Shown here: in pieces, positions 1,491 to 33,327 of the stretch | How the letters are laid out: each line of letters begins with the position of its first letter | How positions within the stretch are numbered: the stretch's first letter is position 1 | Notes under the pieces: model-generated | Databases searched by the model: none | What the model saw: the letters and a program-made list of their open reading frames with translations, nothing else | What the model was told of the DNA's origin: nothing | Program-made: the position numbers and the translations under genes | DNA from: an uncultured Terriglobales bacterium | Lineage (GTDB): Bacteria; Acidobacteriota; Terriglobia; Terriglobales; Acidobacteriaceae | Length of the DNA: 45,731 nucleotides | Direction of reading: 5' to 3' | Assembly: GCA_955652395.1 (NCBI GenBank) | Contig: CATPBJ010000043.1 | Location: 1 to 45,731, forward strand

Positions 1491-1535
1491 CATTTGAATT
1501 ACTTGCCGCCAGGCGGTGCTTGTAAGATCATTTTA

Positions 1536-1585
1536 CGGCGATGGAGTTCGCCACAACCGCCCTCCGGGGCTGATGACTCCTGCCA
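1536..1585 (+). promoter_or_regulatory. Fluoride (crcB motif) riboswitch
   Basis: The sequence GGCGATGGAGTTCGCC (1537-1552), then ACAACCGCCC, a short GGGGC stem and CTGATGACTCCTGCC (to 1584) reproduces the known crcB/fluoride aptamer: a first stem with the GGCGAUGG start, the AACCGCC segment, and the conserved CUGAUGRCUCCU segment that forms the pseudoknot and long-range pairs. It sits 23 bases before the start codon of crcB, the expected target gene. The ribosome binding site AAAGGAG (1592-1598) follows directly, so control is probably at translation or by a short expression platform. No T-tract terminator is visible between aptamer and gene. Confidence 0.93.
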
Positions 1586-1607
1586 AATCACAAAGGAGAA
1601 CTCCATC

Positions 1608-21496: not shown

Positions 21497-22951
21497 CTAC
21501 CAGGCGCCTTCTGCCTGGCACATGGCCAGCGAGGCGCTCTGCTCTACGACAGGTTCCGATTTTGAGAAGAACGCCCGATGCAGACGTTGTACCGCTTCCA
21601 CGGCGCGTGATTCGTCCACCAGGAAGCTGATGTTCCGCTCAGAGGCACCCTGGCAGATCATGCGCACGTCGATATCCCCAAGGGCGCGAAACGCCTGGCT
21701 GGCGATTTCCGGACGGCGCCGGACCTGCTCTCCTACCAGACAGACCAGCGCCTTGTGATTTTCCCAGCGTACATTGGCCATCCCTTTCAGTTCTTCGGCG
21801 ACCGCCGGCAGAGCCGATACCGAGCTCACCAGCAGCGCCAGGCTGCCGCGTGAAGCAGACAACAGGTCCAGACCGTGCTGATGACGCTCGAAGACGTCGA
21901 AGACCTCGCGCAACAGTTCGGACGCAAACCAGCGCACCGGCTCTACGTCCACGATGGCAACGCCGCACTTCGAGGTGATGGCTTTGACCCCGTCACCTTC
22001 ACCGCACGCTACGATTTCGGTCCCGGCGCAATCCGGATTGCGGGAATTGAGCACCCACACCGGAATATCGTTGCGCATGGCCGGCACCAGCGTCGCGGGG
22101 TGCAGCACCTTGGCGCCGAAATAGGCCAGGTCGGCTGCTTCATCGAAGCTCATGCGAGGAACGCGGCGAGCGTCCGGGCACAGATTGGGATCGGTGGTCA
22201 TGATGCCGTCCACGTCAGTCCATATTTCGATCCGCTGGGCGTGCACACCGGCACCCACGATCGAGGCGCTGAAATCGGAACCGCCGCGACCCAGCGTGGT
22301 AGGAATACCGTCCCGAGTAGCGCCCACAAATCCGCCCATCACCGGGACCTGACCCGATTCCAGTAACGGCACCAGAACAGCTTGCAGGCGCTGATTCGTT
22401 TCTTCCCACAGGGGCGTCGCCCGGGTATGCGCGGCGTCGGTGACTATGCACTTTCTGGCGTCAACCAAAGCGGCATCCACTCCGGCCGATCGAAGGGCCG
22501 ACTGTACCAGCTTGGACGAAAGAGATTCACCCGCCCCCAAGAGACTGTCCTGGGAGCGCGGAGTAAACGCCTTTTCCGCAGCGATGGCGAGCAGCATTTT
22601 GTCCAGGACCTTGAATTCGTTCGCGAACTCGCTGAACAGGGGGCTGCGTTCATCACCTTTCGACAGTCCGCTGGCAACGGTCTCGTGCCGCCGGTGGAGA
22701 ACTTGAAGAATTTCGCGGGCGGAGTCAAGGTGTCCTGCTGCGGCAGACCAGCCAGCGTTCATCAACTGGTCGGTGATTTTGGCCAAGGCGCTGACCACCA
22801 CAACAGGGCGGTGAGGCGATGGCCGTAGCACCAGTTGGCACAGGCGGCGAATGGCGGCCGCGTCCTCCACCGAAGTGCCGCCGAATTTCATGACAACACA
22901 TTCGAAATGCTGGCTCGCTGCTTCCCTGCTCGCTTCCGACGGGTCGGTCAT
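21497..22951 (-). CDS. lysC: Aspartate kinase
   Basis: First step of the aspartate family pathway (lysine, threonine, methionine, isoleucine). 484 residues; amino acid kinase fold with VMKFGGTSVEDAAAI at the N-terminus, VVVVSALAKITDQL, GRGGSDFSA and WTDVDGIMTTDP. The C-terminal third carries two ACT-like regulatory domains (about 330-480). The ATG at 22951 has AAAGGGAG seven bases upstream; the longer frame to 23014 enters the leader. It is not fused to homoserine dehydrogenase. It is preceded by a leader peptide ORF and terminator (23000-23169), so transcription is probably attenuated in response to threonine charging, in addition to feedback on the enzyme. Confidence 0.94.
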   Translation of the reverse strand: MTDPSEASREAASQHFECVVMKFGGTSVEDAAAIRRLCQLVLRPSPHRPVVVVSALAKITDQLMNAGWSAAAGHLDSAREILQVLHRRHETVASGLSKGDERSPLFSEFANEFKVLDKMLLAIAAEKAFTPRSQDSLLGAGESLSSKLVQSALRSAGVDAALVDARKCIVTDAAHTRATPLWEETNQRLQAVLVPLLESGQVPVMGGFVGATRDGIPTTLGRGGSDFSASIVGAGVHAQRIEIWTDVDGIMTTDPNLCPDARRVPRMSFDEAADLAYFGAKVLHPATLVPAMRNDIPVWVLNSRNPDCAGTEIVACGEGDGVKAITSKCGVAIVDVEPVRWFASELLREVFDVFERHQHGLDLLSASRGSLALLVSSVSALPAVAEELKGMANVRWENHKALVCLVGEQVRRRPEIASQAFRALGDIDVRMICQGASERNISFLVDESRAVEAVQRLHRAFFSKSEPVVEQSASLAMCQAEGAW

Positions 22952-22999
22952 CTTGTCTCCCTTTGGTTTCTTGTTGGTTGATATCTGAGTTTTTTGGGG

Positions 23000-23039
23000 C
23001 AAACAAAAACCCACCGGCCATTTGCTTCTGGCGGTGGGT
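23000..23039 (-). terminator. Attenuator terminator in the lysC leader
   Basis: On the minus strand ACCCACCGCCA (23039-23029) pairs with TGGCCGGTGGGT (23020-23009), with one bulge, and is followed by TTTTTGTTTG. It lies between the leader ORF and lysC, so it would end transcription before the gene unless the antiterminator forms. Confidence 0.88.
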
Positions 23040-23096
23040 CTTGTCAGCCGTTAAAGCTTTGTGTTTCTCAGCTCACCAGGCGCCCTCCCCCAGAAG
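23025..23096 (-). promoter_or_regulatory. Antiterminator pairing of the lysC leader
   Basis: The leader ORF segment CTTCTGGGGGAGGG (23096-23083) is complementary at 12 of 14 positions to CCCACCGCCAGAAG (23038-23025), which is the 5' arm of the terminator. The two structures are therefore mutually exclusive. The segment begins 13 bases after the last of three clustered Thr ACA codons. Confidence 0.8.
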
Positions 23097-23169
23097 ACAC
23101 GCTAATTCGTGTCGATGTGCCTGTGCTCATCGATGTAATTCGCTTAGCCTTCTGGGAAGTTGCTTTCAT
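23068..23169 (-). CDS. Thr/Ser-rich leader peptide of lysC
   Basis: A 33-codon ORF in the lysC leader. Its central part reads MSTGTSTRISVSS; three Thr codons there are all ACA, which should be rare in a genome this GC-rich, and an Ile codon follows. An internal ATG at 23130 (codon 14) would give a 20-residue peptide and is an equally likely start; neither has a convincing Shine-Dalgarno. The arrangement resembles the classical thr operon leader, where scarce charged threonine stalls the ribosome. Here stalling would expose the antiterminator segment; finishing translation to the stop at 23068 would cover it and let the terminator form. Function is inferred from structure only. Confidence 0.78.
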   Translation of the reverse strand: MKATSQKAKRITSMSTGTSTRISVSSGGGRLVS

Positions 23170-23191
23170 GGTTGCTGTTCGCGAACCTGAT

Positions 23192-23362
23192 CTAGTTGTG
23201 CTGCTCCCGGCCCAATCTAGGATCCGGATTCTCCGGTTTGAATTCCTCAAAGAATTGCATCAGCCGATCAACCAGTCTGCGCCTGCCTCCGATGACGTGG
23301 AGTCCGCTTTCATGCTGATGCTCTTCCAGAATCTTGTTCAATCCACTTTCCAGTTCTTTCAT
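23192..23362 (-). CDS. Small ORF of unknown function upstream of the lysC leader
   Basis: A 56-residue ORF starting MKELESGLNKILEEHQ and ending RLGREQHN. It is charged and predicted mostly helical (ILEEHQHESG, RRRLVDRLMQFFEEF). GAGGGGGT lies about six bases before the ATG, a good ribosome binding site, which makes chance less likely. It ends 22 bases before the first possible start of the leader peptide, so the two may share a transcript. I do not recognise a family. Confidence 0.55.
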   Translation of the reverse strand: MKELESGLNKILEEHQHESGLHVIGGRRRLVDRLMQFFEEFKPENPDPRLGREQHN

Positions 23363-23557
23363 ACCGCACCCCCTCAGCTGGGTTCAATTTACGTTGGATA
23401 CCCGCAAATAATAACGCGATCAAAGCTCCTGAGGCTTCAGCATGAGAGTAGCAATTTTCTGCGGCAAAAAGGAAACTTGAAATTGTGATTCTCAGCATCG
23501 ACAAATTCGATCGGTCCCTGGACCGCCGTTTGAGGGGTTGTTTATCGGTCCAAACCC

Positions 23558-24448
23558 TTACTTGGAAGCGCTAGCCAGCTGTCGAACGGTGCTGATGAAG
23601 GTGGTAGTCGCGCGGGTGTGGGTACGGTCGCGCCGGTAGGCGATCCCCAGTTCCCGCCATAACTCCTGGTCCCGGATGGGAATCAATTTAACGCGTCCGG
23701 CCAGCACCTGGTCTTTGGCAAAACTGGAGCTGATCAGCGAGACTCCCAGTCCGGCAGCCACAAAACTCTTGATCATGCCTACGCTGGGCAATTCCATTCG
23801 TACCTGGAGATGCGCGGCATAAGGACGGAACAGCTTGTCCATCACCCGGCGGCTGTAACCGGTTTTGGGGAGAAGCAATGGCTGTTTGGCAACCTCGCTC
23901 ACCGGCACTACATCGAGCTTGGCCAACGGGTTTTGCGGACTCACCATCAGCATGAGCTGATCGCGAAAAATGGAATGCGTCTTCAGACTGGCCGACTTTA
24001 CCGGCAGGGTCACGATCCCTACATCGATGGTGCCGTTCTCTAGCTTCTCGACGATCTTGTAGCTGAAGTTGCGATAAATGCTGATCTGCACGCCCGGGTA
24101 CAAATGGCAATACTTGGCGAAGACATCCGGGAGGACATAAAGGCAGGTGGCCTCATTGGCGCCGATCACCAGGGTGCCGCGTGGACTGGTACCCTGGTCG
24201 GCCACGGCGAGCAAAGACTCGTCCCGCATCTGCAGCAGACGCTCGGCGTAGGCGAACAACACCCGGCCCGCAGGCGTGAGGGTCACATCCTTGCCGGAAC
24301 GATCGAGAAGCCGGTCTCCGTATTCCTGCTCCAGCTGACGAATCTGGGCGCTGACGGCAGACTGGGAGCGGAAAACCTTCTGCCCGGCTCGGGAAAAGCT
24401 TCCCAGCTTGGCCACTTCCATGAACGTAACTAGCTGGTCGAAGTCCAT
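23558..24448 (-). CDS. LysR-family transcriptional regulator
   Basis: A 296-residue LTTR. N-terminal winged helix with FMEVAKLGSFSRAGQKVFRSQSAVSAQIRQLE (given in outline: SFSRAG and SQSAVSAQIRQLE are the key parts), then a linker helix and a substrate-binding domain from about residue 90 (GTLVIGANEATCLYVLP). The domain resembles CysB/CbbR-type effector domains. It lies on the same strand just downstream of gltB, as GltC-like regulators of glutamate synthase often lie next to their target, but it could equally serve lysC or sulfur genes. The effector is unknown. Confidence 0.9.
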   Translation of the reverse strand: MDFDQLVTFMEVAKLGSFSRAGQKVFRSQSAVSAQIRQLEQEYGDRLLDRSGKDVTLTPAGRVLFAYAERLLQMRDESLLAVADQGTSPRGTLVIGANEATCLYVLPDVFAKYCHLYPGVQISIYRNFSYKIVEKLENGTIDVGIVTLPVKSASLKTHSIFRDQLMLMVSPQNPLAKLDVVPVSEVAKQPLLLPKTGYSRRVMDKLFRPYAAHLQVRMELPSVGMIKSFVAAGLGVSLISSSFAKDQVLAGRVKLIPIRDQELWRELGIAYRRDRTHTRATTTFISTVRQLASASK

Positions 24449-24510
24449 GAGTAGTGGGAGATTATAGCGGACAATGTGACGGATTAGAAATTTTGCGAAT
24501 GTTAGGAGTC

Positions 24511-24549
24511 AAGAAACGCGATGCTTTTCAAGGGAAGAAGCATCACGCT
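24511..24549 (-). terminator. Probable terminator after gltB
   Basis: On the minus strand GCGTGATGCTT and AAGCATCGCG form a stem around a ten-base loop and are followed by TTTCTTG. It lies 24 bases after the gltB stop and before the LysR gene. Confidence 0.6.
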
Positions 24550-24572
24550 TTGGGCTGACGGGAGGTTTCTCT

Positions 24573-27500
24573 TCACACCACTGCTATGGGGCGCGGATCC
24601 GCCGACTGCGGCACGTATACTGTAGTCGGTTCCGTAACCGAAACGGGTTGCCGCTTGAATCTGGACAGAATCGGGGCCCATGTCTCCCCCACTGAGCACG
24701 GCAACGCCAGAGGTTCCACGCGCAGAAACGGCAGAGGAGCAGCAGAATTCAGCAGACTCGCCGCGCGGGGGCTGGCGGTGAGCCGCAAATGTTTGCGCAA
24801 CACCCGGCGCAGCCACAGTTCTTCACGAACTTCGACGGGAGCCAACCGGACGGAATGCTGGTTGTATCCGTATCCGCCAATCGAATCGCGCAGCAGATAG
24901 GCGAGGCCGCCGGTCATGCCTGCGCCCAGATTCATCCCCGCCGGACCTAGAATCACGGCCACGCCGGCCGTCATGTACTCGCAGCCGTGTTGACCCACGC
25001 CTTCCACAACTGCCAGCGCGCCGCTGTTGCGCACTGCGAATCTCTCGCCTACCCGTCCCGCGATATAGAGTTCTCCGCTGGTGGCGCCGTAGAGCAGGGT
25101 GTTGCCCGCGAGCACATCGCCTCGCAACGACGCATGTTCCCCGGCGGTGATCGCAATCGTGCCCCCGGACAAACTTTTGCCCACATAATCATTAGCTTCG
25201 CCGACCAGCCGGAAGTTCAATCCCTTGACCAGAAATCCACCGAAGGTCTGTCCCGCGCTGCCGACAAATTCATATTTCACGGGTGAATCGGTCAGCACTC
25301 CCGCCTGTCGCAACATCTCTCCGCTCAAATGAGCGCCGATGGAGCGATCGGCGTTCGTAATCCGGAAACGACGGCGGCGTGCGGCGCGAGTGTCCGAGTC
25401 GTCGACGACGCCCGTGATGGTACGGTTCAACTCGCGATAGAGACTGCTCTGGTCTTCGGGAGCGCAAGCCGGTAGGCAGGCAGAAATGATCGGATCCAGC
25501 AACCCCGCAAGCGCGCGGGCCGCTTGCGTAGTGCGAGGTCGCAGCCGTTGCGCCTGGCCCACGATGTCATCGATCGAACGGGCGCCCAGCGAAGCCAGCG
25601 ATTCGCGGACATCCGCGGCGACCGCCCGGAAATAAGTCTCGACCATCTCCGGCTTTCCGGTGAAGCGGGTGCGCAGTTTTTCATCCTGAGTGGCGATGCC
25701 GACGGGACAGGTATTGAGATGGCATTGCCGCGCCATGACGCATCCCAGAGCCAGCAGAGACGCGGTGCCAAAGCCAAATTCCTCCGCGCCGAGAAGCGCA
25801 CCGATGATGACATCTCGCGCGAACTTGAATCCACCATCCACCCGCAGGCGCACGCGGCCACGCAGCCCGGTTCTCACCAGGGCAGCGTGAGCATCGCGCA
25901 AGCCTACTTCCCAGGGCAGTCCAGTGTTCTTGATAGAAGTAATCGGCGACGCTCCGGTACCGCCGTCGTGACCGCTGATGGTAATGACGTCGGCCCCGGC
26001 CTTGGCCACGCCCGTGGCGATGATTCCCACGCCGGCGCTGGCCACCAGTTTCACGCCAATTCGCGCTTGCGGATTGATCGCTCGCAGATCGTAGATCAGT
26101 TGCGCCAGGTCCTCAATGCTATAAATGTCATGATGCGGTGGCGGAGAAATCAGCATCATGCCGGGGACAGCGTGGCGCAGACGCGCAATGTACACCGAAA
26201 CTTTGCTGGCCGGGAGTTGGCCACCTTCACCCGGCTTGGCGCCTTGAGCAATCTTGATTTCCAGTTCGTCGGCGTTCACCAGATATTCCGCGGTCACTCC
26301 GAATCGTGCCGACGCTACCTGCTTGACCCGGTTATTGGCCTCGTGGTCGTGGGTGTAGGCCTCGGGAGCTTCGCCGCCCTCGCCGGTATTGCTGCGGCCG
26401 CCGAGCCGGTTCATGGCGATGGCGAGAGTGCGGTGAGTCTCCGGCGAAATCGCTCCCAGCGACATGGCCTGCGTGCTGAAGCGGCCCAGAATGGAAGCCT
26501 CGGTTTCAACCTCGTCGAGCGGCAGCTCCTTGTCCGGAACAATCTCCAACAAGTCCCGGACCGCGACTGGCGTCCTCTGGTCGCCGAGTTCCATGAAGGC
26601 ACGATGATTCTCGTCAGTTGGAAATTTGATATAGCGATGCAGGCGCCGCACCAACTCAGGCGAGCTGGCATGTTGCTCTCCGTGATGGCGGAAGCGATAA
26701 AGCCCATGGTCCTGCAATTGCGCGGTCATCGTCATCGTGGGAAAAGCGATGGAGAATACTGAATCGTGACGGTCGAGACAATCCTGCAAGAGCTCGGTCA
26801 GGCCTTTGCCGGCGAGAGAGCAGCTTGCATCTTCGAAAAATCGGCTGCACACCTCTGGATCCAGACCGATGATCTCGAACAGATGACTGTTGCGGTAGCT
26901 GGCAATGGTCGAGATGCCCATCCGCGCAATCACTTTGCGCAAGCCCTTTTCCACCGCGCCGCGATAGTCGGCTGCCCCACCCGGTTTCAAGTGCGCAGCC
27001 TGTTCCAGCGCCAGATAGGGGAAGACGGCGCTCGCACCTGCGGCCACCAGCAGCGCCACGTGATGGGTGTCGATGACCTGTCCGGTTTCGATCACCAGGG
27101 GAATGTTCTGCGCGCCAGCCTCGACCATTGCCTTCCACGCCGCGGCCAAGGCAAGGAGCGCCGGCAGCGCTGCACGTTTTGTGTCTACGCCGCGATCGGT
27201 CAGCAGCATGAGTCCCGGAGCTTTGGCCGAGGCTGTCTTTACGTCTTCCTGCAACCGTGTGAGCGTTGCCTTCGCCTCCTCCACTCCGTTCTCTGCCACA
27301 AAGGTGAAGGTGATCCGTTCGGTTGTCCCCAACTCTTTTTGCAGCAACTGCAATTGCCCGCCATCGAGCAGCGGTGAGTTGAGCGCAGCCGGGCCGAGAA
27401 ATACCTTCAGCGACATGACGTGAGTTTCGCGCAGAGAGTCAATGGGCGGATTCGTCACTTGCGCGAAGCGCTGCTTGCAATAATCCCACAGCGGACGCTT

Positions 27501-28943
27501 GAAACTGGACATCGAAGCCGGCGGCGCATCGTCGCCCATGCTCCAGACCGCTTCCTGCCCTTGCTCGACCAGTGGTTGGAACAGCAACCGGAACTGGTCT
27601 TCGCTCCAGCCCATCGCTGCCATCGTCGGTTTCAGATCGGGCGTCCGGTCCAGAAACGGTTTGTCGGTGGGTTCCACCAGCACTGCCGGCACCGAAGAGA
27701 CAGCGCGGATTCCCTCCCGCAGCCGCAGCGAATCTTTGGGACGCACGAACTCGCCGCTCTCCGGATTGACCAACAAAACTTCTCCCGGCCCCAGTCGCTG
27801 CCTTTCAATGATTTCCTTGCCGTGGAGATCGGCAATTCCCACCTCGGAGCCGACGACCAGCAGTCCGTCCGACGTCAGGGTGTAGCGCAGCGGACGCAGC
27901 CCGTTGCGGTCAAGCTTCGCGCCCATCGTGCAACCGTCGGTGAAGACCAGCGCGGCCGGACCGTCCCACGGCTCCTGCAAGCGGGCCTGCTCTTCGAGAA
28001 AGCTGCGCAACTCGGGCGCAGCCTCGGGTGAACGCTCCCACGCCGGAGGGACCATCGAGAGCATGGACTCCGCCGGGTTGTAATCGCGACGCAGGAAAAG
28101 TTCAAAACCATTATCGAAACTGGCCGAGTCGCTTACCCGGTCCTCCAGCAGCCGAACCTGATCCGAAAATCGCAGTTCGTGACGCAAGGCCTGCGCCTTC
28201 GCGCGCAGCCAGCGACGGTTGCCGCTGATGGTGTTGATCTCGCCGTTGTGGGCCAGAAACCGAAACGGTTGCGCCATCGACCAGCTGGGTTGGGTATTGG
28301 TAGAGTAGCGCTGATGAAAGATAGCGAACGGGCTTTCAAAGTCTGGATCGCGCAAGTCGCAGTAAAACGCCGGTAATTGGGAAGGAGTGAGCAGTCCCTT
28401 GTAAACCACGGTCCGACATGACAGCGAACAGAAATAAGTCCCGGCGGGAGCGTTGGATTCTGTTTCCTTGCGGAAATGGAAGAGAAGGAATTCAAGATTC
28501 GGTGTTTCTGACCGGGGAACGAGGAAGCATTGCTCGATGACAGGTAGAGCGTCTAGGGCACGCGGGCCGAGAACTTCGGGATTGCTCGGGACTTGACGCC
28601 AACCCAGACATTTCAGACCGCTTTTCTTCGCCTGCGCTTCGATAGCCTTCCGCGTCGCCTCTTCCTTACCCGGCGGCAGAAAGACCATTCCGAGCCCGAA
28701 CACCACAGGCAGCTTGATGCCCAACCTGCTCGCATGCTTGCGAATCAATTTGTCCGGGATGCAAGTGAGCAGGCCTGCGCCGTCACCGCTGCTTCCGTCA
28801 GCGTCCACACCTCCTCGGTGCGCCAGCCTGATCAGGGCTTCGAGCGCGCGATCCACGATCTCGCGCGAAGCGGCTCCGCCGATTTGGGCGACCAGGCCGA
28901 CACCGCAGGCGTCGTGGTCTGTGGTCAAGTGACTCGGACTCAT
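24573..28943 (-). CDS. gltB: Glutamate synthase large subunit
   Basis: A 1456-residue glutamine-dependent glutamate synthase alpha chain. After a 12-residue propeptide the nucleophile Cys is in DACGVGLVAQIGG, the class II amidotransferase start. The central and FMN domains follow, with PPHHDIYSIEDLAQLIYDL and SGHDGGTGASPITS. The 3Fe-4S cluster cysteines are in CVMARQCHLNTCPVG. The C-terminal beta-helix (GXG repeats) shows GDVLAGNTLLYGATSGELYIAG. I start at 28943 (MSPSHLTTDHDACGVG); the longer frame to 29060 would bury the Cys. No gltD is next to it, so the small subunit must be elsewhere or the enzyme uses ferredoxin. Confidence 0.94.
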   Translation of the reverse strand: MSPSHLTTDHDACGVGLVAQIGGAASREIVDRALEALIRLAHRGGVDADGSSGDGAGLLTCIPDKLIRKHASRLGIKLPVVFGLGMVFLPPGKEEATRKAIEAQAKKSGLKCLGWRQVPSNPEVLGPRALDALPVIEQCFLVPRSETPNLEFLLFHFRKETESNAPAGTYFCSLSCRTVVYKGLLTPSQLPAFYCDLRDPDFESPFAIFHQRYSTNTQPSWSMAQPFRFLAHNGEINTISGNRRWLRAKAQALRHELRFSDQVRLLEDRVSDSASFDNGFELFLRRDYNPAESMLSMVPPAWERSPEAAPELRSFLEEQARLQEPWDGPAALVFTDGCTMGAKLDRNGLRPLRYTLTSDGLLVVGSEVGIADLHGKEIIERQRLGPGEVLLVNPESGEFVRPKDSLRLREGIRAVSSVPAVLVEPTDKPFLDRTPDLKPTMAAMGWSEDQFRLLFQPLVEQGQEAVWSMGDDAPPASMSSFKRPLWDYCKQRFAQVTNPPIDSLRETHVMSLKVFLGPAALNSPLLDGGQLQLLQKELGTTERITFTFVAENGVEEAKATLTRLQEDVKTASAKAPGLMLLTDRGVDTKRAALPALLALAAAWKAMVEAGAQNIPLVIETGQVIDTHHVALLVAAGASAVFPYLALEQAAHLKPGGAADYRGAVEKGLRKVIARMGISTIASYRNSHLFEIIGLDPEVCSRFFEDASCSLAGKGLTELLQDCLDRHDSVFSIAFPTMTMTAQLQDHGLYRFRHHGEQHASSPELVRRLHRYIKFPTDENHRAFMELGDQRTPVAVRDLLEIVPDKELPLDEVETEASILGRFSTQAMSLGAISPETHRTLAIAMNRLGGRSNTGEGGEAPEAYTHDHEANNRVKQVASARFGVTAEYLVNADELEIKIAQGAKPGEGGQLPASKVSVYIARLRHAVPGMMLISPPPHHDIYSIEDLAQLIYDLRAINPQARIGVKLVASAGVGIIATGVAKAGADVITISGHDGGTGASPITSIKNTGLPWEVGLRDAHAALVRTGLRGRVRLRVDGGFKFARDVIIGALLGAEEFGFGTASLLALGCVMARQCHLNTCPVGIATQDEKLRTRFTGKPEMVETYFRAVAADVRESLASLGARSIDDIVGQAQRLRPRTTQAARALAGLLDPIISACLPACAPEDQSSLYRELNRTITGVVDDSDTRAARRRRFRITNADRSIGAHLSGEMLRQAGVLTDSPVKYEFVGSAGQTFGGFLVKGLNFRLVGEANDYVGKSLSGGTIAITAGEHASLRGDVLAGNTLLYGATSGELYIAGRVGERFAVRNSGALAVVEGVGQHGCEYMTAGVAVILGPAGMNLGAGMTGGLAYLLRDSIGGYGYNQHSVRLAPVEVREELWLRRVLRKHLRLTASPRAASLLNSAAPLPFLRVEPLALPCSVGETWAPILSRFKRQPVSVTEPTTVYVPQSADPRPIAVV

Positions 28944-29128
28944 CTTTACACTGTGTATCGTCAATGCCGGTGGTAAGTACAATCGAGAATTTCGATGGGT
29001 CGGATGGATTTTTTGGGCAGCAAGATTGTGATCGCAGAGAGGCTCTAACCACCAGGACACTAAGGTACATGACCGAAAACGCTGAGCTTAAATCGGATGA
29101 CTAAGTGACCCTTCCTGTCCTTGTTGGT

Positions 29129-29878
29129 TTATGAATTGTCCTGGGCTCCGCGCTTGTCGACACTAATTTCAACCAAGGGCGTGATCGCTGTTGGGGCTTC
29201 AACGTGCAGTCCGCACTCGGTCTTCTCCGACCCCGACCAGCGTCCCGCGCGTGCACTTTCTCCCGGACGGACGGCTCGGGTACAGTGGGTGCATCCAATA
29301 CTGGGATAACTCTTGTCGTGCAGGGGGTTATAGGGAACGTTGTGCTTGAGGGCGTACCTCCACACCATCGGCGAAGTCCAGTCGGCGATGGGATTGATCT
29401 TCAACAGTTGAAACTTTGCATCCCACTCCGCCTTGCGGGCTGAGGCGCGCGAAGCAGTCTGGTCGCGGCGAATGGCAGTGATCCAGGCGCGCAATTCTGT
29501 CAGTTTCGTTCGGAGCGGTTCAACCTTGCGCAGGCCGCAGCACTTGTCGGGATCGCGGCTCCAAAGCGCTGGGCCATGGTCCCGCTCCTGCTCTTCAGGC
29601 GTGAGTGTGCTGTAGACCCTCTCAATCTTGATTCCGTAGCGTTTTTCGACGCGATCCATGAGATCGTAAGTTTCAGGAAACAGAAAGTCGGTATCCAGAG
29701 TGAAGACTCGGAAATCTGTACGTACCCGCGAGGCCAGGTCGAGCAGCACCATTCCCTCAATCCCGAAGCCCGAGGCGATCGCTACGTCCTTCCCGTAAGT
29801 TGCGAATGCCCACCTCAGTACTTCTTCCGGGCGCCACTTTTCCACTTCGGCCGGTATCAACTCTGCGTGGTCTCTCAC
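29129..29878 (-). CDS. cysH: Phosphoadenylyl/adenylyl-sulfate reductase, APS type
   Basis: Reduces activated sulfate to sulfite with thioredoxin. 249 residues. The PP-loop region is AIASGFGIEGMVLLDL. Four cysteines that bind a 4Fe-4S cluster are present: CC at residues 113-114 and CTHC at 196-199. This marks the APS-using form, as the PAPS-only enzymes lack the first pair. The catalytic C-terminal Cys is in TECGLH (222). It is the last gene of the sulfur operon and overlaps cobA by four bases. ATP sulfurylase genes are not in the window. Confidence 0.93.
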   Translation of the reverse strand: MRDHAELIPAEVEKWRPEEVLRWAFATYGKDVAIASGFGIEGMVLLDLASRVRTDFRVFTLDTDFLFPETYDLMDRVEKRYGIKIERVYSTLTPEEQERDHGPALWSRDPDKCCGLRKVEPLRTKLTELRAWITAIRRDQTASRASARKAEWDAKFQLLKINPIADWTSPMVWRYALKHNVPYNPLHDKSYPSIGCTHCTRAVRPGESARAGRWSGSEKTECGLHVEAPTAITPLVEISVDKRGAQDNS

Positions 29879-30684
29879 TCCGCACGCTCCTGACCCACCG
29901 ACAAGACCAAATCACTCGAGGCGAACTCAGCCGAATTGCTCGGCCACGCGAACTGCTCATGGAGCGCAGCCGGTTTGCCAAGGCGTACTACTTCGCCGAC
30001 TACCAGCAGCGTGGGCGAGGGCAGTCGCGGAGATAGGTGCAGACCTTCAACGGTCGTGACGTGAACCTGCTCGTCGGGTAATGTGGCTCGCGAGAGGATG
30101 GCACACGGGGTCGTGCCAGGCACGCCGACACGCAGGAGCTGTTGCGCCGTGCTGCAATAGTCGTATCCCGGCATATAGACGACCACGGTCGCGTCAGTCG
30201 GGATCTTCGCCGGCCAGTCAGCAAATTCGTCCGTGGCCGCGCGATGGCCGGTGACCAACACCACCGCGGATGAAACTTCACGATGAGTGAGCGGGATCTG
30301 TGTGCTGGCTGCGGCGCCGAACGCGGACGTGACCCCGGGAACGATTTCAAACTCGACGCCGGCCTTGCGTAAAGCTTCGATTTCTTCGCCGCCGCGGCCG
30401 AAAATGAGCGGGTCGCCGCTCTTGAGGCGGACCACCTGCAGGCCCAGCACAGCATTCTGTACCAGAAGCGCATGGATTTCGGGCTGGCTGATGCACTTGC
30501 GTCCGAAACGTTTACCCACGTTCTGGACTTCCGTCGAGGTTGGAATGAACGCCAGGATCTCCGGCCCGATCAAGTCGTCGTGCAGCACGATGTCGGCTGA
30601 CTTCAGAAGTTTGAGAGCTTTGAGGGTCAGCAGCTCGGGATCGCCCGGACCCGCTCCCACCAGGTACACCTTACCCTTCATCAC
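29875..30684 (-). CDS. cobA: Uroporphyrinogen-III C-methyltransferase
   Basis: Methylates uroporphyrinogen III twice to precorrin-2, the start of siroheme synthesis. 269 residues. Motifs: VYLVGAGPGDPELLTLKAL, VLHDDLIGPEILAF, RLKSGDPLIFGRGGEE and the family segment VVYMPGYDY. In this operon it provides siroheme for the upstream sulfite reductase. It overlaps the precorrin-2 dehydrogenase by four bases and cysH by four, as in the cysG functions split over two genes. It may be named sumT in other annotations. Confidence 0.94.
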   Translation of the reverse strand: MMKGKVYLVGAGPGDPELLTLKALKLLKSADIVLHDDLIGPEILAFIPTSTEVQNVGKRFGRKCISQPEIHALLVQNAVLGLQVVRLKSGDPLIFGRGGEEIEALRKAGVEFEIVPGVTSAFGAAASTQIPLTHREVSSAVVLVTGHRAATDEFADWPAKIPTDATVVVYMPGYDYCSTAQQLLRVGVPGTTPCAILSRATLPDEQVHVTTVEGLHLSPRLPSPTLLVVGEVVRLGKPAALHEQFAWPSNSAEFASSDLVLSVGQERAE

Positions 30685-31301
30685 ATTTTCTCCAGACTAC
30701 CTGCTTCGATATTGAATTCCGCAGCCTGTGCCCTTTCGAAAGCCTCACGGCTGGCCAGATCGTGCAACAAATGACGTCGCTCCTCGGGGTCGATCTTGCT
30801 GGCAAACAATTGCTGCCTTATGCGTCCCAATTCCTCCAGCCATGTGCCATATTCCGGTCCAAACTGAATTTCGAGTTCGCGCCTGATTCTTTGTGCCAGC
30901 GCGGGGCTGTGGCCGTTAGTCGAGATGGCGAGCTGAAGGTCACCCCGCCGCACGACCGCGGGATAGTAAAAGTCGCAATACTCCGGATCATCCACCACGT
31001 TGCACAAAATATTTCGCTGCCGCGCTTCGTGGAAAATCGTGGCATTCACATCCCGAGAATTGGTGGCGGCAATGACCAGGAAAGGGCCGTCAAGATCCGC
31101 AGCCTCGAAAGCTCGCGCTTCCCAGGTGATGCGTCCGGTCTGCGCCCATTCGGCAACGGCGGCCGTGGCATGAAGTGCGATCACGCGGACCGACGCGCCG
31201 GACACGATCAGGCTGCGGATCTTCGGCTCGCCGACGGTGCCGGCACCGACCACCAGGCAGGAGCGGCCTTCGAGTTTCATGAACATCGGAAACAAAGTCA
31301 T
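30681..31301 (-). CDS. Precorrin-2 dehydrogenase / sirohydrochlorin ferrochelatase (CysG N-terminal type)
   Basis: A 206-residue protein similar to the N-terminal half of CysG (Met8p/SirC type). It oxidises precorrin-2 with NAD+ and may insert iron. N-terminal Rossmann motif: CLVVGAGTVGEPKIRSL; then VIAATNSRDVNATI, the catalytic region NVVDDPEYCDFYYPAVVRRGDLQLAISTNG (key parts: NVVDDPEYCDFYYPA and AISTNGHSP). The ATG at 31301 lies 48 bases after the sulfite reductase gene stops. Together with cobA it gives the complete siroheme route. Confidence 0.9.
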   Translation of the reverse strand: MTLFPMFMKLEGRSCLVVGAGTVGEPKIRSLIVSGASVRVIALHATAAVAEWAQTGRITWEARAFEAADLDGPFLVIAATNSRDVNATIFHEARQRNILCNVVDDPEYCDFYYPAVVRRGDLQLAISTNGHSPALAQRIRRELEIQFGPEYGTWLEELGRIRQQLFASKIDPEERRHLLHDLASREAFERAQAAEFNIEAGSLEKM

Positions 31302-31349
31302 CGCCTAAACGTCCAGTACGACTGAAGTCGCGCCCTTCCCTCTCTCCTT

Positions 31350-33050
31350 TTAGCCCTCGACCGCATGCGGCACCTTTCCTGGCGAAGGATCTCGCTCGGC
31401 CGCTGCCAGGAACTTTCCCGCCAAGCACTCGCGCAACTCTTCATCGCTGCGGCGCGCAAAATAGTGGCGCAGGTTTTCGTCGGGCGACCTTTCGTTCAGG
31501 TAACGAAGCAACAAGCGTTCGATGGCGTCCGGCACTTCGCTGGCCAGGCAGCGATACCCGATGGGACGCGCGATCGACTGGTGCAGCCCAACTGCGCCGC
31601 CCACGCAGAAGTAGTAGGCATCCTGCTGATGGCCGTCCACCTTAATCTTTTTGCCCTCGATGCCAATGTCAGCGATCCAGTGCTGACCGCAGCTGTTGGG
31701 GCATCCGGTGACGTGCAATTTCAGGTGTTGTTCGAATCCCGGCAGCCGCTCTTCAAGCTCTTCGACCAGCCAGCGGGAAAAACTTTTGGTTTCGGTAATC
31801 GCGATCTTGCAGAATTCCGACCCGCTACATGCAACCACGCCGCGCCAGAAAGATGAGCCGCCAACGGGCATTTTGTTGGCTTCCAGTGCACTCGCCAGCG
31901 CTTCCGCGTTACCCCTGGGCACATTCACGATAAGCAGGTTCTGCATGTTGGTGGTGCGCAGTTGGCCGAACGCAAAGCGATCGGCGGCATCGGCCGCGGC
32001 GCGCATCTGCTGGGCCGAGATCCGTCCCCTCAGCACAGCGGCTCCAACGTATGAATATCCAGCCTGTTGTTGGGGATGGATTCCGACGTGATCGCGATAA
32101 ATATCGTCGGGCGGTTTTTCTTGAACCGCGGGATCGAGATGAAAGCCGATGCGTCGTTCCAGCTCTTCCTGAAAGCTTTCGGCGGTCCAGCCGTGCTTCA
32201 GGAACAGGAACTTGAGCCGCGCGCGTTCCCGGTTCTCGCGCAGTTTTTCGCTCTCGCGGAAAATCTCGGCGACTCCCTTGAGAACCGGCATTACCTGGTG
32301 GCGTTGCACAAAAGCGTTAAGCCGGACCGCCAGATGAGGATCAGTCGAGAGCCCGCCACCGATTCGCAGGGAGAAGCCAACTTCGGAATCTCCACCCGCA
32401 CGGCGAATTGCGGTGAAGCCCACATCATTGATTTCCGGATAGGCGCACCAGACGCGGCATCCGGTAATGCAGACCTTGAATTTGCGGGGCAGATTGTAGA
32501 AGTCTCCGTTGCCGACGAAGAAGCTATTGGCTTCGAGCGCCAGGGATGAGGCATCGCAGATCTCGTCGGCATCCACACCGGCGAGGGGGCAACCGGTGAT
32601 GTTGCGGGTATCGTCTCCGCAGGAGCCCATGGTGGTCAGCCCGGCGCGCCACAATCCATCCAGCAGCTCCGGCAGGTCTTGAATAGTCACCCAGTGCAGC
32701 TGGATGTTTTGCCTCACCGTCAAGTCAGCGGTTCCGCGGGCATATTTCTCGGTCACGCTGGCGATAGTTCGAAGCTGGTGAGCATGAAGCAGGCCGTTGG
32801 GAATGCGGATCCGCACCATGAAGAACGGGAGCGCCTTCCCTTCCCCGTTCTTGCCACCCATGACGCCGGCACCGTCCCCTTGGGTGTACACGCCCCACCA
32901 GCGGAAATATGTACCCAGCCATTCGGGCGTGATGGAATCGAAGCCTTCGCAGGCGAACTTGCGGATGTCGACGAGGCCTTCCCACGGATTTTTCTCACGC
33001 TTCAGCCGCTCGACCCGCTGCGCTTTCGTTTCTGTAACTGCATTTGCCAT
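31350..33050 (-). CDS. Ferredoxin-type sulfite (nitrite) reductase
   Basis: A 566-residue hemoprotein with two ferredoxin-like half domains and two siroheme domains. Four cysteines that ligate the 4Fe-4S/siroheme centre are at about residues 408, 414, 450 and 454 (CSGSEFC and TGCPNSCG). Nitrite and sulfite reductases of this NirA/SirA type look alike. Its operon partners (siroheme genes and cysH) point to sulfite in cysteine synthesis. I start at 33050 (MANAVTETK); the longer frame to 33092 enters the attenuator hairpin. No good ribosome binding site is visible. A Cys-codon-rich leader ORF and a terminator lie directly upstream. Confidence 0.92.
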   Translation of the reverse strand: MANAVTETKAQRVERLKREKNPWEGLVDIRKFACEGFDSITPEWLGTYFRWWGVYTQGDGAGVMGGKNGEGKALPFFMVRIRIPNGLLHAHQLRTIASVTEKYARGTADLTVRQNIQLHWVTIQDLPELLDGLWRAGLTTMGSCGDDTRNITGCPLAGVDADEICDASSLALEANSFFVGNGDFYNLPRKFKVCITGCRVWCAYPEINDVGFTAIRRAGGDSEVGFSLRIGGGLSTDPHLAVRLNAFVQRHQVMPVLKGVAEIFRESEKLRENRERARLKFLFLKHGWTAESFQEELERRIGFHLDPAVQEKPPDDIYRDHVGIHPQQQAGYSYVGAAVLRGRISAQQMRAAADAADRFAFGQLRTTNMQNLLIVNVPRGNAEALASALEANKMPVGGSSFWRGVVACSGSEFCKIAITETKSFSRWLVEELEERLPGFEQHLKLHVTGCPNSCGQHWIADIGIEGKKIKVDGHQQDAYYFCVGGAVGLHQSIARPIGYRCLASEVPDAIERLLLRYLNERSPDENLRHYFARRSDEELRECLAGKFLAAAERDPSPGKVPHAVEG

Positions 33051-33065
33051 AGGATTTTGGCCACG

Positions 33066-33103
33066 AAAAAACCCACCGCCAGTGAATTGCACTGGCGGTG
33101 GGT
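33066..33103 (-). terminator. Attenuator terminator in the sulfur operon leader
   Basis: On the minus strand ACCCACCGCCAGTG (33103-33090) and CACTGGCGGTGGGT (33084-33071) form a perfect 14-bp stem with a five-base loop, followed by six T residues. It ends 16 bases before the reductase start codon, so it must be read through for the operon to be expressed. Confidence 0.93.
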
Positions 33104-33157
33104 ATGATTGCCGACTTCTAAAAAGGTTCTTAGGTCAGCGGCCCCCTGGCGCCAGTG
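33077..33157 (-). promoter_or_regulatory. Antiterminator pairing of the sulfur operon leader
   Basis: The leader ORF contains CACTGGCG (33157-33150), identical to the first eight bases of the terminator 3' arm. It can therefore pair with the 5' arm (CGCCAGTG, 33097-33090) and prevent the terminator; further GG-CC pairs are possible. It starts 11 bases after the last Cys codon of the leader, so a ribosome stalled there would leave it free. Confidence 0.78.
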
Positions 33158-33216
33158 GATACACGCGTACAACAACAAGTACAACACTGGCAGCGCGTTG
33201 CGCAGGAAGCTGACAT
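33130..33216 (-). CDS. Cys-rich leader peptide of the sulfite reductase operon
   Basis: A 28-codon ORF with seven Cys codons (residues 5, 9, 11, 12, 14, 15, 16); the core is CQCCTCCC, followed by TRVSTGARGPLT and a TAA. Five of the seven are TGT, the codon that should be rarer in a GC-rich genome. It overlaps the antiterminator segment and precedes the terminator. Cys-rich leader ORFs that attenuate sulfur genes are known from mycobacteria. The likely scheme is: low Cys-tRNA stalls the ribosome on the Cys run, the antiterminator forms and the operon is read; ample cysteine lets the terminator form. No Shine-Dalgarno is visible, and the promoter places the start very near the mRNA end. Confidence 0.87.
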   Translation of the reverse strand: MSASCATRCQCCTCCCTRVSTGARGPLT

Positions 33217-33226
33217 GAACTCACTA

Positions 33227-33255
33227 ATGCTAGATAGCAGGACGAAGTCTGTCAA
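33227..33255 (-). promoter_or_regulatory. Sigma70-like promoter of the sulfur operon leader
   Basis: On the minus strand TTGACA (33255-33250) and TAGCAT (33232-33227) are separated by exactly 17 bases. The -35 is perfect and the -10 matches four of six. Transcription would start near 33220, about four bases before the leader ATG at 33216, giving an almost leaderless ORF. Confidence 0.8.
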
Positions 33256-33327
33256 TCTGCTTCTGGATTCTTTAGATGAAAATTTCGAATACGACGCATC
33301 AAAAAAGTTGCGTCGAGCCAGCAGTCC

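What the first reader, a model, noticed from the sequence alone, without database searches (positions are those of the whole stretch)
33066..33255. Cysteine-codon leader peptide and terminator/antiterminator in front of the sulfite reductase operon
A 28-codon ORF with seven Cys codons (core CQCCTCCC) sits between a good promoter and an intrinsic terminator that precedes the sulfite reductase start codon. CACTGGCG in the ORF can replace the terminator 3' arm. This is the complete layout of ribosome-mediated attenuation, with cysteine as the sensed amino acid and cysteine-forming genes as the target. Leader ORFs with runs of Cys codons are known to attenuate sulfur genes in mycobacteria. I know of none described in Acidobacteriota, and this one would be missed by gene callers because it is short and overlaps a longer frame.
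Basis: partly seen in the sequence, partly recalled or inferred. Interest (0 to 1): 0.93.

Follow-up and report, generated by a model that had tools for sequence, protein, structure and literature searches.

The report
Cysteine-sensing attenuator in soil Acidobacteria
A short reading frame with a run of cysteine codons sits before the likely sulfite reductase operon of a soil bacterium and, with an RNA hairpin switch kept in its relatives, is predicted to let the operon be read only when cysteine runs short; a similar RNA layout with threonine, isoleucine and methionine codons lies before an aspartate kinase gene nearby.

Summary
The minus strand carries a 28-codon ORF with seven Cys codons (33216-33130) between a promoter-like site (33255-33227) and a strong intrinsic terminator (33103-33066), just before the start codon (33050) of a likely sulfite reductase. 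Of 162 distinct acidobacterial loci, 113 have a short ORF with at least 4 Cys in 8 codons before this gene, against 5 of 810 shuffles and 0 of 10 non-acidobacterial homologues. The terminator stem covaries. The start codon lies 6-11 nt after a -10 box in 75 of 116 Cys-rich leaders, against 3 of 2280 shuffles, so translation is predicted to be nearly leaderless. RNA models built from these elements find Cys leaders before other sulfur genes and, inside this window, a second element (leader 23169-23068) before an aspartate kinase, with Thr/Ile/Met codons but the same arm and terminator sequence. Cysteine-controlled transcription attenuation is strongly predicted, untested. Mycobacterial poly-Cys leaders are described as translational attenuators or as lacking obvious terminators, so this is a new variant. 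A shared scaffold with exchangeable sensor codons is the boldest reading.

The parts
33227..33255 (-). Promoter-like site: TTGACA (33255-33250), 17 nt, TAGCAT (33232-33227); start codon 10 nt after the -10 box, so a nearly leaderless mRNA is predicted
   Evidence: start 6-11 nt after a -10 box in 75 of 116 Cys-rich leaders, 3 of 2280 shuffled upstreams
33130..33216 (-). Leader ORF, 28 codons, 7 Cys: MSASCATRCQCCTCCCTRVSTGARGPLT
33169..33192 (-). Sensor codons CQCCTCCC (TGC CAG TGT TGT ACT TGT TGT TGT)
   Evidence: alignment A2
33185..33194 (-). Arm 1 candidate (GCTGCCAGTG), can pair with arm 2; weakly supported
   Evidence: arm 1 with arm 2 better than 95% of shuffles in 44 of 60 core, 32 of 70 other loci; one search shows it does not dominate
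33141..33157 (-). Arm 2 (CACTGGCG 33157-33150 plus GGGGG), antiterminator 5' arm, 13 nt from the Cys run to CTGG in 48 of 60 core loci
33110..33139 (-). Small hairpin between arms 2 and 3 that holds the leader stop codon (GCTGA 33139-33135 with TCGGC 33114-33110)
   Evidence: 88% of cells paired; one pair varies as U-G, U-A, C-G
33066..33103 (-). Intrinsic terminator: arm 3 ACCCACCGCCAGTG (33103-33090), arm 4 CACTGGCGGTGGGT (33084-33071), T run 33071-33066
31350..33050 (-). Likely sulfite reductase (NIR_SIR protein), first gene of the operon
   Evidence: below NCBIfam cut-offs, assignment by context
30681..31301 (-). Siroheme synthase N-terminal type (precorrin-2 dehydrogenase)
29875..30684 (-). 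Uroporphyrinogen-III C-methyltransferase
29129..29878 (-). cysH-type (phospho)adenylylsulfate reductase
23068..23169 (-). Second leader ORF, MKATSQKAKRITSMSTGTSTRISVSSGGGRLVS, Thr/Ile/Met codons
23090..23096 (-). Second element, arm 2 (CTTCTGG), complementary to CCAGAAG 23031-23025
23005..23039 (-). Second element, terminator ACCCACCGCCAGAAGCAAATGGCCGGTGGGT and T run, dG -21.9
21497..22951 (-). Aspartate kinase type protein (AA_kinase, ACT_9)

Best explanation
The leader at 33216-33130 with its terminator at 33103-33066 is most likely a ribosome-mediated transcription attenuator that would switch the sulfite reductase operon on when charged Cys-tRNA is scarce. Shown from sequence: the Cys-codon run, the promoter-like site, the strong terminator with its T run, an arm inside the ORF that is identical to the terminator 3' arm, and conservation of these in relatives. 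Inferred: transcription starts at or a few nt before the AUG, so a ribosome loads at once without a Shine-Dalgarno site. With enough cysteine it runs to the stop codon, which lies in the small hairpin between arms 2 and 3, and hinders arm 2 and that hairpin; arm 3 then pairs with arm 4 and transcription ends. When cysteine is short the ribosome waits on the Cys run, arm 2, which begins about 12 nt beyond the run, stays free and pairs with arm 3 before arm 4 is made, and RNA polymerase reads on into the sulfite reductase, siroheme and cysH genes. The second element in the window (leader 23169-23068) likely does the same for aspartate kinase with Thr, Ile and Met codons.
For: Of 162 distinct acidobacterial loci 113 have at least 4 Cys in 8 codons of a short ORF and 148 at least 3; shuffles 5 and 82 of 810; antisense 3 and 8 of 162; 0 of 10 Methylomirabilota/Rokubacteria homologues reach 3. 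Terminator stem 97.8% paired, 6 pairs with double changes, 0 of 500 shuffles. Arm 2 with arm 3 pairs better than 95% of shuffles in 44 of 60 core and 29 of 70 other loci, several of these with different arm sequences, e.g. L013, L019, L038, L054. In the core, 13 nt from Cys run to CTGG in 48 of 60. Folding with the ribosome footprint masked and arm 4 not yet made, P(arm 2 with arm 3) has median 0.91 when stalled at the last Cys codon and 0.04 at the stop codon, 56 of 60 core loci evaluated; for this window's leader 1.00 and 0.02. Promoter-like site in 83 of 116 Cys-rich leaders against 19 of 2280 shuffles. Sensor codons match the pathway: of 23 hand-listed elements at other genes, nearly all sulfur genes, 22 have at least 3 Cys in 8 and none has 6 T/I/M in 12; of 19 at aspartate kinase or homoserine dehydrogenase 18 have 6 T/I/M in 12 and none has 3 Cys in 8 (genes by Pfam).
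Against: Covariation of the antiterminator helix is not above shuffles in the core alignment (one pair with double changes, shuffles mean 1.3), as its arms hardly vary. Without any ribosome P(arm 2 with arm 3) is already 0.76 (median) and 0.97 here, so a protective arm 1 helix is not supported. At equilibrium the terminator wins in 56 of 56 with or without a stalled ribosome, so the switch rests on timing. 14 of 162 loci have at most 2 Cys in 8 codons, and 41 of 70 non-core loci do not pass the arm 2 to arm 3 test. No expression data were available.
Confidence: 0.86

Rival explanations
1. Translational attenuation as reported for mycobacteria: the stalled ribosome would free the sulfite reductase ribosome-binding site, and the hairpin acts on translation rather than on transcription.
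For: Leaderless poly-Cys ORFs are described as regulating downstream translation in M. smegmatis (passages in PMC13236596 and PMC9031893); here the stem ends only about 20 nt before the start codon.
Against: The hairpin is GC-rich and followed by a T run, the hallmark of an intrinsic terminator, and this is kept in the aligned core (the core was chosen for having one). In several loci the next start codon lies 60 nt or more after the T run (e.g. L304 116 nt, L306 62 nt, L294 99 nt).
Confidence: 0.08
2. The Cys-rich peptide is itself a small working protein, for example metal-binding or redox-sensing, and the hairpin is an ordinary terminator.
For: Cys runs are kept over wide distances.
Against: The N-terminal half of the peptide differs between clades while the Cys run and the RNA arms stay; aspartate kinase elements use T/I/M codons with the same arms; the spacing of Cys run to arm 2 is kept.
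Confidence: 0.03
3. Chance: a T/G-rich stretch before an unrelated terminator.
For: Short ORFs with Cys repeats occur elsewhere in this genome (several pattern hits, most of them unlinked to a terminator or not examined further).
Against: Controls.
Confidence: 0.01

Closest known systems
Poly-Cys leaderless short ORFs of mycobacteria (Canestrari et al. 2020, Mol Microbiol, doi 10.1111/mmi.14498; paper not held, known here from citing passages)
   Same: Cys-codon run in a short, probably leaderless ORF before sulfur genes; Cys as predicted signal.
   Different: Described as translation attenuation in M. smegmatis; PMC1262725 found no conserved terminator hairpins there and proposed Rho. Here an intrinsic terminator and a competing arm are present.
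Classical leader-peptide transcription attenuators of amino acid operons (trp, his, thr type; general features recalled)
   Same: Cognate codons in a leader ORF, alternative hairpins, intrinsic terminator before the first gene. The aspartate kinase leaders resemble the thr logic (Thr and Ile codons; the E. coli comparison is recalled).
   Different: Cys as sensed amino acid; nearly leaderless start; no Rfam leader family matches either element; the same arm and terminator sequences recur before Cys and Thr/Ile/Met operons.
Leaderless attenuators with Rho-independent terminators in Streptomyces lividans (trpL1, ilvL, leuL2; passages of PMC8079986)
   Same: Leaderless leader peptide plus terminator hairpin.
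   Different: Other phylum and amino acids; no Cys leader is in the passages seen.

Membership tests
Ribosome-mediated transcription attenuators | Leader ORF with repeated codons of the amino acid made by the downstream genes | tested here: met
Ribosome-mediated transcription attenuators | Intrinsic terminator between leader ORF and first gene | tested here: met
Ribosome-mediated transcription attenuators | Mutually exclusive antiterminator using an arm near the sensor codons | tested here: met
   pairing; covariation in the core not above shuffles
Ribosome-mediated transcription attenuators | Protective (1:2) hairpin that favours termination without translation | tested here: inconclusive
   passes in 44 of 60 and 32 of 70; one search shows arm 2 with arm 3 preferred without a ribosome
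Ribosome-mediated transcription attenuators | Readthrough rises when the charged tRNA is scarce | not testable with these tools
   needs an experiment
Mycobacterial poly-Cys attenuators | Cys-codon run in a leaderless ORF before sulfur genes | tested here: met
   start sites are predicted, not measured
Mycobacterial poly-Cys attenuators | No intrinsic terminator; control of translation | tested here: not met
   terminator; translational control itself not tested
Rfam leader families | Match to a described leader RNA model | tested here: not met
   whole window, gathering; 22900-33300, E up to 5

The most novel reading that the evidence does not exclude
Acidobacteria of this class use one attenuator scaffold (arm 2 CTTCTGG/CTGGCG, a small stop-codon hairpin, terminator CCCACCGCCAG) as a module: copies before different operons carry different sensor codons (Cys before sulfur genes; Thr, Ile and Met before aspartate kinase and homoserine dehydrogenase; in one genome Ile and Val before ilvC), so that attenuators spread by copying and recoding instead of arising anew at each operon.
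Probability: 0.45. Interest if true: 0.86.

Novelty: new variant of a known kind. Interest (0 to 1): 0.74.

Why it matters
It predicts how a large, little-studied group of soil bacteria controls sulfate assimilation, by cysteine codons instead of a regulator protein, and gives a testable cysteine attenuator that acts on transcription. Naville and Gautheret note that almost none of the attenuators predicted in Acidobacteria have an associated function (passage of PMC2965389). If the scaffold is shared by descent, it would show leader-peptide attenuators spreading by copying and recoding.

Tried and rejected
Rejected: chance (controls); Rfam families; a general poly-Cys regulon in this genome by pattern search (only the sulfite reductase leader was clear; other Cys-rich short ORFs were not followed). 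The earlier count (135 of 185) held near-duplicates and one acidobacterial locus (L190) in the excluded group; one search replaces it.

Branched-chain operons: an Ile/Val-rich leader on this scaffold was seen before ilvC in one genome only (L297/L417, G006); 22 ilv operon upstreams were looked at and no other had it. Lead kept as isolated.

The second aspartate kinase paralogue: of 50 kinase upstreams searched, 10 have a short ORF with 6 T/I/M in 12 codons and 40 do not; many of the 40 follow an asd-like gene (read by eye). Shuffles of the 10 reach 6 in 86 of 1000, so a single such ORF is weak evidence alone.

Rows dropped: five loci could not be oriented (L011, L060, L068, L075, L078) and L094 was too short; one search dropped one locus with N, seven short ones and near-duplicates (196 to 162). 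Core alignment A2: 74 loci chosen for a C-terminal motif and a terminator, 72 after removing near-duplicates, 12 outliers left out by hand, 60 aligned. One search is a hand-made list: for several loci more than one frame is open and the frame with Cys or T/I/M codons was taken; for L380-L386 the ORF with most T/I/M was taken; sir elements, ilvC, L283 (start off the contig), L335 and L336 (terminator only) are not in it; the sulfur list includes a carbonic anhydrase (L290), an outer-membrane protein (L298) and one locus without an identified gene (L292). Weak model hits not inspected: G018:C34:174665, G069:C78, G043:C108, G053:C147, G013:C27, G018:C12:683. One search's printed output was cut and no count is taken from it.

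Full report
What is there. On the minus strand the stretch 33255-33066 reads promoter-like site, 28-codon ORF with seven Cys codons, intrinsic terminator, and then the start codon 33050 of a NIR_SIR protein followed by siroheme genes and cysH. The enzyme scores below the NCBIfam cut-offs for both nitrite and sulfite reductases; it is called a likely sulfite reductase from its operon. The arm CACTGGCG in the ORF is identical to the start of the terminator 3' arm, so both compete for CGCCAGTG. The nearest named relative is a Terriglobia MAG, JAIQFF010000024.1, with 92% identity in this protein.

Conservation. The protein was sought in 80 relatives (63 with a match at E 0.001), in 298 genomes of the order (238 at E 1e-100) and in named genome contigs (562 relatives, best 80 kept). 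Upstream DNA was taken for 211 loci. After dropping loci that could not be oriented, short or N-bearing ones and near-duplicates, 162 distinct acidobacterial loci remained: 113 have a short ORF with at least 4 Cys in 8 codons and 148 with at least 3. Dinucleotide shuffles give 5 and 82 of 810, the antisense strand 3 and 8 of 162, and 10 Methylomirabilota or Rokubacteria homologues none at 3. Fourteen of the 162 have at most 2. Leader Cys codons are TGT 481 to TGC 268, against 12 to 45 in eight genes of the window (second pair of counts); the leaders are related, so the P value there is not to be taken at face value.

Structure. In the 60-sequence core alignment the terminator stem is 97.8% paired with 6 pairs changed on both sides, a level that 0 of 500 shuffles reach. 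The arm 2 to arm 3 helix is 90.3% paired, but nearly invariant: one pair has double changes, which shuffles match. Outside the core the arms differ and often stay complementary: 29 of 70 loci pass a 5% shuffle test, and 44 of 60 in the core. A small hairpin between the arms holds the leader stop codon and is 88% paired. The distance from the Cys run to CTGG is 13 nt in 48 of 60.

Start of the leader. A promoter-like site is found in 83 of 116 Cys-rich leaders, and in 75 the start codon lies 6-11 nt after the -10 box; shuffled upstreams give 19 and 3 of 2280. An SD-like four-mer precedes the start in 1 of 83. The leaders are therefore predicted to be nearly leaderless. Start sites were not measured.

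Switch. With arm 4 not yet made, the probability that arm 2 pairs with arm 3 is 0.91 (median of 56 loci) with a ribosome masked on the last Cys codon, 0.04 with one on the stop codon, and 0.76 without a ribosome. The stop-codon footprint reaches arm 2 or its neighbours, so part of that fall is by construction. With the full leader the terminator wins in all 56. The model is thus kinetic, and an arm 1 hairpin is not needed or clearly supported.

A wider family. A covariance model of the Cys leaders matched 37 of 80 genomes at E 0.1. Besides the sulfite reductase genes it found Cys leaders before other NIR_SIR reductases (L304, L310, L318, L319, L321, L301, L291), siroheme synthases (L280, L282, L306), PAPS_reduct proteins that read as CysD (L316, L320, L288), a PALP protein that reads as CysK (L294), a ThiS protein (L317), TauE exporters (L314, L289), a rhodanese (L302), an NMT1-like binding protein (L305) and a pyridine nucleotide oxidoreductase (L300) (finer names than the Pfam domain are my reading). 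It also found, in this window, 23108-23003 at E 1.6e-5, before an aspartate kinase. The leader there is MKATSQKAKRITSMSTGTSTRISVSSGGGRLVS; arm CTTCTGG pairs with CCAGAAG in its terminator. A second model of the scaffold without the Cys codons finds in this genome only these two elements and their opposite-strand echoes at E 1. Similar T/I/M leaders precede aspartate kinase or homoserine dehydrogenase in relatives: 18 of 19 hand-listed ones reach 6 T/I/M in 12 codons and none has 3 Cys in 8, while 22 of 23 at the other genes have 3 Cys in 8 and none reaches 6 T/I/M (choice of frames disclosed in Tried and rejected). The other kinase paralogues lack such ORFs: 40 of 50 upstreams stay below 6.

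Known or new. Searches of the held library (listings seen) listed no paper on a cysteine attenuator in Acidobacteriota; subscription papers are mostly missing from it. Passages read: PMC2965389, PMC13236596, PMC9031893, PMC1262725, PMC8079986, PMC9094748 (reference list only). PMC1262725 reports Cys-rich leader peptides in Actinobacteria without conserved terminators; PMC13236596 states that M. smegmatis cysteine genes are under translation attenuation. The element here works like a classical transcription attenuator, is predicted to be nearly leaderless like the mycobacterial ones, and senses cysteine: a new variant. Whether the Cys and Thr/Ile/Met elements share descent is open; their arm and terminator sequences agree, but convergence on a good terminator is possible.

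Noticed in passing
window 23169-21497 (-): Second attenuator-like element with Thr/Ile/Met leader before an aspartate kinase, on the same arm and terminator sequence; arginine-type genes follow on the same strand.
   Followed up: yes
window 1528-1589 (+): Fluoride riboswitch (RF01734, 60.9 bits, gathering 34).
   Followed up: no
L297:1501-1620, L417: Ile/Val-rich leader (MNSRLHTIAVVARISSRVQIIVRHGALLEESIC) on the same scaffold before ilvC in one genome (G006); not seen in the other ilv operons looked at.
   Followed up: partly
L290, L298: Cys-rich leaders with terminators before a carbonic anhydrase and an outer-membrane FadL-type protein, neither an obvious sulfur gene.
   Followed up: no
leaders: Leader Cys codons favour TGT (481 to 268) while eight window genes favour TGC (12 TGT to 45 TGC); might slow decoding or avoid structure.
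   Followed up: partly
L149, L180, L194, L196, L203-L205, L209-L211: Methylomirabilota and Rokubacteria contigs encode the same reductase at 67-74% identity but without the Cys leader, which may mean gene transfer without the attenuator.
   Followed up: no
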